The translations under genes were made by a program, and so were the position numbers. From positions 1 through 64,000 of the IMG/VR virus record IMGVR_UViG_3300010430_000017: a stretch of DNA of 64,000 nucleotides. One strand, given 5' to 3'. Numbering within the stretch: position 1 is the stretch's first letter; each line of letters begins with the position of its first letter. This DNA comes from a virus. This document shows positions 27,310 to 58,257 of this stretch, piece after piece. A model generated the notes under the pieces. That model was given only the letters and a program-made list of their open reading frames with translations, was not told where the DNA came from and made no database searches.

Positions 27310-27603
27310 ATGAAGGACCTAACAAGAAATGAAGAGCATTACTATCTGTTCCAGAAAGCTGATCAATGGTGCGGTAGAAGGACAGGAAGAGGGTTCAGGC
27401 TTAATAGCAACCTAAAAGAGTCCTGGTTCTATCCAGAAAAGGAATTCAGTATCTGGTGCTATGATAAAACTATAGATGAAGGATTCCATATTTATACAAA
27501 ACAGGATAAGTTCTTGACATATGATGAAATGCTTGTTATAAAGAAAAAGAACTTGGATGAGGACTATAAAGAAGAGATAAAGGGGTTGAGTAATGAGAAT
27601 TAA
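27310..27603 (+). CDS. Hypothetical protein, 97 aa
   Basis: SD AAGGAGATCAT. Basic, aromatic-rich N-terminus (CGRRTGRGFRL) and charged helical C-terminus. Overlaps the RlmN-like gene by 11 bases, so the pair is co-translated. Function unknown. Confidence 0.6.
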   Translation: MKDLTRNEEHYYLFQKADQWCGRRTGRGFRLNSNLKESWFYPEKEFSIWCYDKTIDEGFHIYTKQDKFLTYDEMLVIKKKNLDEDYKEEIKGLSNEN

Positions 27604-28603
27604 AAGAAATATCGAGGTGCCCACAGGAAATATTTGTATTGCAAAAGGAGAGAAAGGTAAAGATTTAGAATTTCTTTCTATTGGAGATTATGGTCGGACT
27701 AAAAATGTCAAAGCTGACTTCCTTGGACTCACGGAAGATATTAATGGTGTTCCTCATGGGGAAGTAATGTCTTTGGAGGAGAAATGGGTTTTAACTATTT
27801 CATCGCAATATGGTTGCAGTATGGGATGTAAGTTCTGTGATGTCCCTAAAGTCGGCCCTGGAGTTAATGCAACACTCAAGGACTTAACTGATCAAATCGT
27901 AACAGGGATAAATCTACACCCTGAAGTTGCAGCTACGAAAAGACTTAATGTACATTATGCAAGAATGGGAGAGCCTACCTGGAATAATAACGTACTTATC
28001 CATGCCAGAGGTTTATTAAAAGAGATCAGACCTTACGTTGGTAGAAGTCTTTGTCATCCTGTTGTATCAACAATGCTTCCTAAGAACAATAAACATTTAA
28101 TGCATTTCCTTCAGGAATGGTGTGAAATTAAGAACTATACCTTCAGAGGTTGTGCTGGACTACAATTTAGTGTAAATTCAACATCTAACGTACAAAGACT
28201 TAATATGTTTTCTGGGAGTTCCTTGTCACTCACTGAGATATCAGAGATAGGTAAGAATCTTCCTATGCCTGTTGGCAGAAAATATGCGTTAAATTTTGCT
28301 CTTGCTGATGACTATGAAGTTAACGCAAGAAAGTTAATAAAGCTGTTTCATCCCTCTAAATTCATGGTGAAAATTACACCCCTTCATAAGACAAACTCCT
28401 GTGTAGATAATAATATTAAAACCTCCGGCGGTTACGAAGAATTTACACCTTATAAAGAAATAGAAAAAGACCTTAAAGATGTTGGATTGGATGTTTTAGT
28501 ATTCATACCTTCTTATGAAGAAGATCTTGGAAGGATAACCTGCGGGAATGCTATTCTCTCTGGTACACTCCCGGAGGTTGATTATAAGGAGATTAACTCA
28601 TGA
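27593..28603 (+). CDS. RlmN-like radical SAM enzyme
   Basis: 336 residues. The 4Fe-4S motif GCSMGCKFC (Cys75, Cys79, Cys82) is preceded by SSQ as in RlmN/Cfr. Further landmarks are YARMGEPTWNN (the GEP SAM-binding motif), LQFSVNSTSNVQR (the SLHA-like strand), MVKITPLHKTNS and a late RITCGNAIL (Cys317), matching the C-terminal methyl-transfer cysteine region (ACGQL in RlmN). It would methylate C2 of an adenine in rRNA or tRNA, or a different substrate. The core is diverged from host RlmN, and a phage copy is unusual. Confidence 0.8.
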   Translation: MRIKRNIEVPTGNICIAKGEKGKDLEFLSIGDYGRTKNVKADFLGLTEDINGVPHGEVMSLEEKWVLTISSQYGCSMGCKFCDVPKVGPGVNATLKDLTDQIVTGINLHPEVAATKRLNVHYARMGEPTWNNNVLIHARGLLKEIRPYVGRSLCHPVVSTMLPKNNKHLMHFLQEWCEIKNYTFRGCAGLQFSVNSTSNVQRLNMFSGSSLSLTEISEIGKNLPMPVGRKYALNFALADDYEVNARKLIKLFHPSKFMVKITPLHKTNSCVDNNIKTSGGYEEFTPYKEIEKDLKDVGLDVLVFIPSYEEDLGRITCGNAILSGTLPEVDYKEINS

Positions 28604-47967: not shown

Positions 47968-48141
47968 TTATCTGTCTTTTGATTCATTCTTCGACTCCTC
48001 ACAAGATTCCAACCTAAAGATCTCGTTCCCCGTGTCAGGCCCACAATCAAGGCAAGGGCAAACATCTTCATTCTCGAAGAAACATCCCTGGCACCCACCA
48101 AAACCCTCCACAAGCTCTACTTCAACTATGAATTTTTTCAT
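47968..48141 (-). CDS. Cys-rich acidic microprotein, 57 aa
   Basis: ATGA overlap with the gene upstream. GGCQGCFF, DVCPCLDCGP give five Cys in 17 residues, a likely zinc or iron site, in an acidic context. Unknown. Confidence 0.55.
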   Translation of the reverse strand: MKKFIVEVELVEGFGGCQGCFFENEDVCPCLDCGPDTGNEIFRLESCEESKNESKDR

Positions 48142-48356
48142 GTTAACCTATTTAAACATTCTCTCTTAACCTTATCAATAAAATCAAGTAGAGACAACCT
48201 ACCAACAGTGCACTCAGTACCTCCACATTTATAACTCTGATAGTACTCATCCGATAACATGTAACAATATGTGTGCGCAACAAATATCTGTTCTTTGGTT
48301 TCACAACTCTTAAATACTCTTTGTATTTTTTCCAATACTTGACTATAAGTCATCAA
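48138..48356 (-). CDS. Hypothetical protein, 72 aa
   Basis: ATGA overlaps on both sides. Helical with three Cys and many Tyr (CYMLSDEYYQSYKC). Unknown. Confidence 0.6.
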   Translation of the reverse strand: MMTYSQVLEKIQRVFKSCETKEQIFVAHTYCYMLSDEYYQSYKCGGTECTVGRLSLLDFIDKVKRECLNRLT

Positions 48357-48532
48357 AATTTACTCCATGTCCAAAGTTTAATCCTAAGAATTCCTTTTCT
48401 CAATATCTCAAATAACACAATAACACAAGCACCGAAGAAAAGAAACAAAATATTTATAAACATGAAAAATAGCATGATGATGTTGTGAATATATTTTTCT
48501 ATTGTATTAAGAATGTTCTGTAGTTTAGTCAT
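48353..48532 (-). CDS. Membrane microprotein, 59 aa
   Basis: ATGA overlaps with the methyltransferase-like gene upstream and the 72-aa gene downstream. Strong hydrophobic helix (MLFFMFINILFLFFGACVIV) then a basic tail. Unknown. Confidence 0.6.
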   Translation of the reverse strand: MTKLQNILNTIEKYIHNIIMLFFMFINILFLFFGACVIVLFEILRKGILRIKLWTWSKF

Positions 48533-49134
48533 TTAAGTATTCCCCACTGTTTTGCCATTGCTTCCGCGATACCTCTAAAAAACATAGATCTTCTCTTACT
48601 TCTATCTTTCCCAGGACTCATATACCAAATTCTTTGTTGTTCTTTAAGTGGTAGAGACTGCATTTCAATGAATACATTATTTGTTCCAATAAGGTTCGGT
48701 AAATTATAATTCCATAATCCTGTTTTCTTCTTCTCAGGGTGTCCAAACATATATGGCTGAATATATTGGGAAGGCTTCTTAAGATTACTTTGTGTGGATA
48801 AAACACCCACAGGATTTTCGAAACAAACCCTGTTTCCTTTCTTCTTACATAGATTCCATAACTGTTCTGTCCATTCTATACTCTCCTGTCTCTTTTTTGT
48901 ATTAGAATAATATCTATTCCCAGCAACACACAGGTATGTGCAGGGAGGGTGGCAGATAATTAAGTCATAGAACCCATCTTCTGTATTTTCTAAGATTTCC
49001 ACTACATCGTGCATTATATGGTCGCCGTAAAGCGACTCACTTGGTAAAATATCACAACTTATGGCATAATGGCCTTCTCGGATAAATTCATCCCTTACTA
49101 TCCCAGAATACTCACACCCAACAAAAACCCTCAT
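48529..49134 (-). CDS. DNA cytosine methyltransferase-like protein
   Basis: 201 residues; ATG 49134 (a TTG one codon earlier is less likely), SD AGGAGTATT. Rossmann start MRVFVGCEYSG, an acidic strand end CDIL (Asp28), motif IV-like CHPPCTYL (Cys65 in the PPC loop) and motif VI-like CFENPVG (ENP at 106-108). These match C5-cytosine methyltransferase motifs, but the protein is about half the usual length and lacks a clear target-recognition domain. May modify the phage genome against restriction. Confidence 0.7.
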   Translation of the reverse strand: MRVFVGCEYSGIVRDEFIREGHYAISCDILPSESLYGDHIMHDVVEILENTEDGFYDLIICHPPCTYLCVAGNRYYSNTKKRQESIEWTEQLWNLCKKKGNRVCFENPVGVLSTQSNLKKPSQYIQPYMFGHPEKKKTGLWNYNLPNLIGTNNVFIEMQSLPLKEQQRIWYMSPGKDRSKRRSMFFRGIAEAMAKQWGILK

Positions 49135-49691
49135 CAAATACTCCTAATATGAATAGGTGCAGTAACACCACTACAAAGACCAATAGAAGCTTCCAGGGCT
49201 TTTGTTATTGTACTTTCGGGATCAATAATTTCTTGGTTATTATAAATATGATGCAGAACACCATAAGCATAGGAACTCCCGGAACCAATTGCGTAGTACG
49301 GTTCTGTTGTCTCGACTACTTGGAAAGCTGGATCAATTAGAAATAGTCTTCCATGAATTCCGACAAGATAATTATCGGAATGTTCTTCTACTCCGAGATC
49401 ATTAGCTGAATAACCGCATTGCTTAAACAAATCCATGAGGTTAATACTGAATGTTCTGCACATATAATTCTCAAGAGTTTGTTTCTCTGTATCAAATACA
49501 GGAAGCCAGTCATCAACATGCTTCATTAACTGACTTCCTCTGATCATACCAGCGTATCCGACAAGCATTTGATCATTGAGTTTAATTACCTTGGGTCCAG
49601 TGAGTTTTCTTTCAAGATCCCCGAAAGTAGCACAGCTGTCTGATCCGAAGTACGTCTTGTTCTTGTGTTTCAAAGCAATCACGCAGGTCAT
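49134..49691 (-). CDS. Proteasome-beta / HslV-like Ntn hydrolase
   Basis: 185 residues. After Met removal Thr is the first residue; Asp17 (GSDSCAT) and Lys33 (GPKVIKL) in mature numbering fall exactly where proteasome beta and HslV have them. AIGSGSSYAYGVLHH (135-149) matches the conserved GSG..YA.G segment. The usual late Asp (D..SG) is replaced (IGLCSGVT). It would form a ring protease. No HslU- or ATPase-like partner is in the window. Overlaps the methyltransferase-like gene by one base. Confidence 0.8.
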   Translation of the reverse strand: MTCVIALKHKNKTYFGSDSCATFGDLERKLTGPKVIKLNDQMLVGYAGMIRGSQLMKHVDDWLPVFDTEKQTLENYMCRTFSINLMDLFKQCGYSANDLGVEEHSDNYLVGIHGRLFLIDPAFQVVETTEPYYAIGSGSSYAYGVLHHIYNNQEIIDPESTITKALEASIGLCSGVTAPIHIRSI

Positions 49692-49707: not shown

Positions 49708-49750
49708 TAATAAAAATGTCCTTAAACTTATCTCTAAATCTAAGGACATT
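49708..49750 (-). terminator. Leftward hairpin plus T-run at the transcript start
   Basis: AATGTCCTTA / TAAGGACATT (49741-49750 and 49715-49724) followed on the - strand by TTTTTATT. The first arm overlaps the -10 of the promoter, the same design as at 13.9, 14.77 and 33.17 kb. Confidence 0.75.
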
Positions 49751-49776
49751 CTATACTAAAACTATTTGTGTGTCAA
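49748..49776 (-). promoter_or_regulatory. Promoter TTGACA-17-TAGAAT (leftward)
   Basis: -35 49771-49776, -10 49748-49753. Drives the Ntn hydrolase and methyltransferase-like genes. Confidence 0.7.
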
Positions 49777-58064: not shown

Positions 58065-58214
58065 GGGTCAAGAGAGGAATTGAACCTCTAACATGTATAC
58101 TGTACCAGCAATCTTTATAAATCCCGGTTAAATATAAAGATTAGTCTTAACGGTTTTCGATTCCTATTCACCTGGACCACCTACGCTGTGCCTTACCAAT
58201 TCAGCCACTTGACC
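58065..58214 (-). tRNA. tRNA-like element with oversized middle (anticodon uncertain)
   Basis: Perfect 7-bp acceptor GGTCAAG / CTTGACC, a D-arm GGCTGAATTGGTAAGGC of tRNA-Ser type, and a perfect T-arm AGAGG TTCAATT CCTCT, but about 97 nt between D- and T-arms where 30-50 are expected. That interior holds a 10-bp hairpin (AATCTTTATA / TATAAAGATT) and a loop-like ATCGAAA (CGA, Ser) without a proper stem. No encoded CCA. Promoter TATAAT directly upstream. Either intron-bearing, aberrant or a pseudogene. Confidence 0.5.
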
Positions 58215-58229
58215 TTAATTTCTAAACAC

Positions 58230-58257
58230 ATTATACCACAAATAAATATAATGTCAA
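58230..58257 (-). promoter_or_regulatory. Promoter TTGACA-16-TATAAT for the tRNA-like element
   Basis: Both hexamers are perfect consensus: -35 at 58252-58257, -10 at 58230-58235. The transcript would begin about ten bases before the acceptor stem. Confidence 0.75.

What the first reader, a model, noticed from the sequence alone, without database searches (positions are those of the whole stretch)
48353..49691. Orphan proteasome/HslV-like protease beside a methyltransferase-like gene
Thr1, Asp17 and Lys33 fall at exactly the proteasome positions and the GSG..YA.G strand is present, yet no unfoldase gene is visible. It shares a transcription unit with a short cytosine-methyltransferase-like protein and a membrane microprotein, behind a promoter-hairpin module. 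It might use host HslU, replace host HslV, or degrade peptides or host defence proteins.
Basis: partly seen in the sequence, partly recalled or inferred. Interest (0 to 1): 0.76.

Follow-up and report, generated by a model that had tools for sequence, protein, structure and literature searches.

The report
Phage copy of a proteasome-like protease
A bacterial virus carries a gene for a small protease of the proteasome family; hundreds of other phages carry relatives of it, and none has a known unfolding-motor partner, so it is a new member of a described but untested family rather than a new kind of system.

Summary
ORF 49134-49691 (-), 185 aa, is a true proteasome-fold Ntn hydrolase: Pfam Proteasome 3e-11, phrog_1040 "peptidase HslV family" 7e-14, and an AlphaFold2 model (pLDDT 94.7, pTM 0.90) matching BPH and HslV crystal structures. 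Thr1, Asp17 and Lys33 are in place; in 96 aligned relatives Asp17 and Lys33 never vary and position 1 is Thr in 95. No ClpX/HslU-type gene was found in the 82.5-kb phage record. But it is no isolated oddity: relatives occur in 138 GenBank phages, at least 386 IMG/VR loci and 191 bacterial loci, and Fuchs, Alva and Lupas (2021) already described phage proteasome homologues (PPH, AAH, CPH) without AAA+ partners. Size, four helices and bacterial spread fit AAH best; PPH and true HslV are excluded. The pore loop is long and acidic as in BPH and lacks HslV's basic cluster, so use of host HslU or replacement of HslV is not supported. Most likely: a stand-alone, ATP-independent chamber peptidase activated by Met1 removal, made with the phage's early/nucleotide genes; substrates unknown. 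The methyltransferase link is local to this phage.

The parts
49134..49691 (-). Proteasome-fold Ntn hydrolase, 185 aa (phrog_1040; AAH-like)
   Evidence: Pfam PF00227 3e-11, phrog_1040 7e-14, AlphaFold2 pLDDT 94.7, PDB fold matches to BPH/HslV
49686..49688 (-). Codon of Thr2 = catalytic Thr1
   Evidence: Thr in 95 and Ser in 1 of 96 relatives
49638..49640 (-). Codon of Asp18 = Asp17
   Evidence: invariant in 96 relatives
49590..49592 (-). Codon of Lys34 = Lys33
   Evidence: invariant in 96 relatives
49371..49418 (-). Pore loop between helix 2 and the next core strand (residues 92-107), acidic, no basic residue
   Evidence: model strands 96-98 and 101-103; composition of residues 91-108; aligned with BPH and HslV
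49748..49776 (-). Sigma-70-type promoter TTGACA-17-TAGAAT
   Evidence: 11 of 12 consensus matches; the pattern is enriched in the window, 6 found against 0.59 expected
49713..49752 (-). Hairpin followed by T run, overlapping the -10 box; probable terminator of the upstream unit
   Evidence: folding z -3.85
48529..49134 (-). DNA methyltransferase-like protein, 201 aa from ATG 49134
   Evidence: phrog_757 3e-58; no Pfam, NCBIfam or PDB sequence match; PPC and ENP motifs
48353..48532 (-). 59-aa hydrophobic (membrane-like) microprotein
   Evidence: long hydrophobic stretch in the translation; no family match above cut-off
48138..48356 (-). 72-aa ORF (71 aa from ATG 48353) continuing the coupled gene string
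   Evidence: overlaps the preceding stop

Best explanation
The gene encodes a proteasome-family peptidase of the phage/bacterial phrog_1040 group, most likely the AAH cluster of Fuchs et al. 2021. There is no propeptide; host methionine aminopeptidase would remove Met1 and expose Thr1 (inferred). Subunits would assemble into a ring-shaped chamber like that of BPH, with Thr1-Asp17-Lys33 inside and an acidic pore loop, rather than an unfoldase, controlling entry (inferred). It would work without ATP on peptides and on unfolded or partly unfolded proteins. It is expressed from a host-type promoter near nucleotide-metabolism genes, so probably early, to remove particular or surplus host or phage proteins (inferred). 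Shown: family, conserved triad, monomer fold, absence of a phage ClpX/HslU-type partner, gene coupling. Not shown: assembly, activity, substrate, timing.
For: Family and triad. Fold. Closest solved relative by sequence profile and by TM-score is BPH (4.9e-10; TM 0.81), a double-ring peptidase without a known unfoldase whose start Met is removed and whose Thr1 is labelled by epoxomicin (PMC5777263). Acidic pore loop without basic residues. No AAA_2 gene in the record. The published family has no co-occurring AAA+ (PMC8665760). Promoter and coupling.
Against: No member of the phage group has a reported activity in the papers found. BPH itself showed no activity on standard substrates in the cited work, so a cofactor may be needed. 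The Asp166/Ser169-type residues of the proteasome are not clearly conserved. Oligomerisation was not modelled. Early expression is inferred from the promoter and neighbours only.
Confidence: 0.5

Rival explanations
1. It docks host HslU (or another host AAA+ unfoldase) and redirects it, acting as a viral HslV.
For: Same fold as HslV and no phage unfoldase; Fuchs et al. allow interaction with housekeeping proteins.
Against: Scores far below HslV cut-offs; HslV basic pore cluster replaced by an acidic loop. Five of six bacterial genomes with a relative clearly keep HslV or the actinobacterial proteasome, which argues against replacement. The host of this phage is unknown.
Confidence: 0.12
2. It is a specific processing enzyme (protease or protein ligase, like connectase) for phage head assembly or another single target rather than a general degrader.
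For: In 16 of 68 related loci it lies within three genes of terminase, portal or prohead protease genes. Connectase shows that a family member can be a specific ligase (PMC8665760).
Against: In this phage, T5-like phages and Geobacillus E3 it lies with nucleotide-metabolism genes. A dedicated prohead protease is present beside several of the head-module copies. No null model was run for the association.
Confidence: 0.2
3. It counters host defence by degrading defence proteins.
For: Neighbouring methyltransferase-like gene could be a counter-defence gene (phrog_757).
Against: The methyltransferase is not found beside other homologues examined; homologues are also chromosomal in many bacteria.
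Confidence: 0.1
4. It is catalytically dead or a decayed relic.
For: No activity is known for any phage member; neighbours vary between phages.
Against: The triad is conserved across 96 divergent relatives; the frame is intact, with a good ribosome site and a strong promoter.
Confidence: 0.08

Closest known systems
phrog_1040 'peptidase HslV family' / AAH cluster of Fuchs, Alva and Lupas 2021 (PMC8665760)
   Same: Start MTC, triad, R51 and Q54 signature, 175-195 aa, compact, phage and bacterial (Frankia, Streptomyces, Azospirillum, Bacillaceae) spread.
   Different: Only 28-34% identical to the others in A2. Has Ala-Gly at the oxyanion position and Ser in GSG, where most relatives have Thr-Ser/Thr and Cys. 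Identity with AAH itself is inferred; the published alignment was not at hand.
BPH (betaproteobacterial proteasome homologue; PDB 5OVS, 5OVU)
   Same: Best TM-score (0.81) and best profile hit; Gly47, long acidic pore loop, no known unfoldase.
   Different: About 20% identity; BPH lacks the R51/Q54 signature and keeps an Asp where this protein has Cys173; separate branch in the tree.
HslV (ClpQ)
   Same: Ntn fold, Thr1-Asp17-Lys33, AG and GSG motifs.
   Different: Below HslV cut-offs; no basic pore cluster; no HslU partner gene.
[quoted passage not shown]
   Same: Phage-borne, same triad.
   Different: PPH is ~140 aa and lacks helix H2; this protein has 185 aa and four helices. Short phage homologues of 131-146 aa (Caulobacter phages) match at TM 0.53-0.58 only.

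Membership tests
Proteasome-like Ntn hydrolases (PF00227) | Significant match to the family model | tested here: met
   43.7 bits against a cut-off of 22.4
Proteasome-like Ntn hydrolases (PF00227) | Thr1, Asp17, Lys33, Gly47 | tested here: met
Proteasome-like Ntn hydrolases (PF00227) | Ntn fold | tested here: met
Proteasome-like Ntn hydrolases (PF00227) | Threonine peptidase activity | not testable with these tools
   needs the protein
HslV | Passes the HslV equivalog cut-off | tested here: not met
   34-35 bits against 137-158
HslV | Short pore linker with basic cluster (Arg86, Arg89, Lys90) | tested here: not met
   residues 91-108 hold four acidic and no basic residues
HslV | HslU partner gene | tested here: not met
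   no AAA_2 match in the 82.5-kb record; a host HslU cannot be excluded
PPH | About 140 aa, lacking helix H2 | tested here: not met
   185 aa, helices at 50-58, 73-91, 139-151, 158-172
BPH | Long acidic pore loop | tested here: met
BPH | Groups with BPH sequences in a tree | tested here: not met
   the two BPH sequences form their own branch (0.998); the window protein falls with phage members, though support for the whole group is only 0.71
phrog_1040 | Match to the PHROG profile over the whole length | tested here: met
   6.9e-14, residues 1-182; all 65 members of A2 match it too
AAH | Compact subunit without insertions and without C-terminal helix H5 | tested here: met
   model ends with strand 181-184 after helix 4
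AAH | Spread over alphaproteobacteria, Actinobacteria and phages | tested here: met
   relatives in Azospirillum, Frankia, Streptomyces and many phages
AAH | Position inside the published AAH sequence cluster | not testable with these tools
   the published alignments are not held here

The most novel reading that the evidence does not exclude
A viral self-compartmentalising protease that needs no unfoldase and is used early in infection to destroy defined host or defence proteins, with the acidic pore loop as the selector.
Probability: 0.15. Interest if true: 0.7.

Novelty: new member of a known kind. Interest (0 to 1): 0.3.

Why it matters
What the widespread proteasome homologues of phages do is open, as is whether a proteasome-type chamber can work without an AAA+ motor. 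This member keeps the canonical Gly47 and GSG residues that most of its relatives have changed, so it may be a convenient one to test at the bench.

Tried and rejected
HslV identity: rejected on cut-offs and pore loop. PPH identity: rejected on length and helix H2. A phage unfoldase: AAA_2 and AAA searched in the whole record, only a helicase P-loop below cut-off. A conserved operon with the methyltransferase: found beside the protease only in a near-identical contig; the methyltransferase loci L094 and L095 hold no protease homologue. A conserved neighbour that would give the function: Pfam counts over 124 upstream and 117 downstream neighbours are scattered; the head-module association (16 of 68) is a lead only. 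Bacterial neighbours mainly showed synteny within Azospirillum and Frankia. IQ-TREE timed out, so FastTree was used. DNA-level relatives among GenBank phages: none. Rfam families: none. Papers on phage members with an assayed function: none found.

Full report
What was checked. ORF 49134-49691 (-) is 185 aa. It matches Pfam Proteasome (43.7 bits, cut-off 22.4) and phrog_1040 'peptidase HslV family' over its whole length. By sequence, its best match in the PDB is the proteasome homologue BPH (7e-6; 4.9e-10 with the family profile). Thr1, Asp17, Lys33, Gly47 and the GSG strand are where the proteasome has them.

Fold. An alignment of 65 window and viral sequences gave an AlphaFold2 model with pLDDT 94.7 and pTM 0.90: a strand-rich Ntn core with four helices (50-58, 73-91, 139-151, 158-172) and no C-terminal helix H5. 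Foldseek finds HslV and BPH crystal structures at E near 1e-12, with the best TM-score for BPH (0.81), and phage proteins at TM 0.90-0.92. Oligomers could not be modelled.

How common it is. tblastn found relatives in 138 GenBank phages, among them many T5-like phages, Geobacillus virus E3, Moorella phage MTATph1 and Vibrio phages, many already annotated 'peptidase HslV family' or 'proteasome subunit'. The viral collection gave 386 loci and the bacterial collection 191, with many Frankia, Streptomyces and Azospirillum among the best 80. These are lower bounds, because only loci with a chosen peptide pattern are seen.

Literature. Fuchs, Alva and Lupas (PMC8665760) described 22 new proteasome homologues. 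PPH (~140 aa, no helix H2) and AAH occur in many phages, and CPH is also listed for phages. They found no co-occurring AAA+ protein and no informative context. The name AAH (alpha-proteobacterial and Actinobacterial) matches what one search shows, so phrog_1040 and the window protein are probably AAH (inference); their alignment was not available for a direct test.

Active-site comparison. In 96 relatives Asp17 and Lys33 are invariant and position 1 is Thr (95) or Ser (1). R51 and Q54 mark the family and are absent from the HslV, BPH and PrcB sequences compared. The Gly47 position is Ser in 61, Thr in 21 and Gly in only 8, and the middle residue of GSG is Cys in 71 and Ser in 15. The window protein has the proteasome-like residue at both. 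A FastTree tree places it with T5-like, Vibrio and Pseudoalteromonas phage proteins (0.78), but support for the family apart from HslV, BPH and PrcB is weak (0.71).

Unfoldase question. HslV works with HslU and has a short pore linker with basic residues nearby; BPH has a long acidic pore loop and no known unfoldase (PMC5777263). The window protein has QCGYSANDLGVEEHSDNY here, with four acidic and no basic residues and two short strands in the model. No AAA_2 match exists in the 82.5-kb record; the single AAA match is below cut-off and lies in the DnaB-like primase/helicase. Of six bacterial genomes with a relative, four clearly hold HslV and one the actinobacterial proteasome; the sixth holds BPH and a fragmentary hit. 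This argues against replacement of HslV in bacteria. The host of this phage is unknown.

Operon. The protease, methyltransferase, microprotein and following ORF overlap by a few bases and follow a near-consensus promoter. Such promoters are enriched in the window (6 against 0.59 expected). The hairpin overlaps the -10 box, so RNA started at this promoter would lack part of the 5' arm; it is more likely the terminator of the genes upstream (inference). The methyltransferase belongs to phrog_757 and has relatives in 159 phage records, but a relative lies beside the protease only here and in a near-identical contig.

Neighbours elsewhere. A T5-like phage (STG2) and Geobacillus E3 carry the gene next to thymidylate synthase and dihydrofolate reductase, and STG2 also near ribonucleotide reductase; the window phage has dUTPase and ribonucleotide reductase upstream. 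In 16 of 68 related loci the gene lies within three genes of terminase, portal, capsid or prohead protease genes. No single context is shared, and no null model was run.

Judgement. It is a new member of a described but uncharacterised family. The best mechanism is a motor-free chamber peptidase; assembly, activity and substrates are inferred.

Noticed in passing
L096:5943-7463 (record 68943-70463, +), outside the window: The terminase large subunit gene has an in-frame TGA (LIAANYLD-TGA-PNYRATFIRR) between the Walker A motif and the rest. The same TGA is in the near-identical contig 3300006467_000457. Phage rV5's terminase, 44% identical, has Asp there. TGA ends other genes of this phage, so it is not a general recoding; readthrough or decay is open.
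   Followed up: partly
58130-58257 (-): A perfect promoter (TTGACA-16-TATAAT) is followed by a tRNA-like stretch (GGTCAAGTGGCTGAATTGGTAAGGCACAGCG...) that ARAGORN and Rfam do not call.
   Followed up: no
L009:2633-3130 and L012:2283-2771: In two Vibrio phages a peptide deformylase gene lies two or three genes upstream of the proteasome homologue, which needs its N-terminal Met removed.
   Followed up: no
27593-28603 (+): A 336-aa protein is 66% identical to a radical SAM domain protein of Bacteroides phage Versailles, far closer than the other phage matches seen.
   Followed up: no
phrog_1040 relatives, window residues 48 and 137: Most relatives have Ser or Thr at the oxyanion Gly47 position and Cys in the middle of GSG, unlike the HslV, BPH and PrcB sequences compared.
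   Followed up: partly
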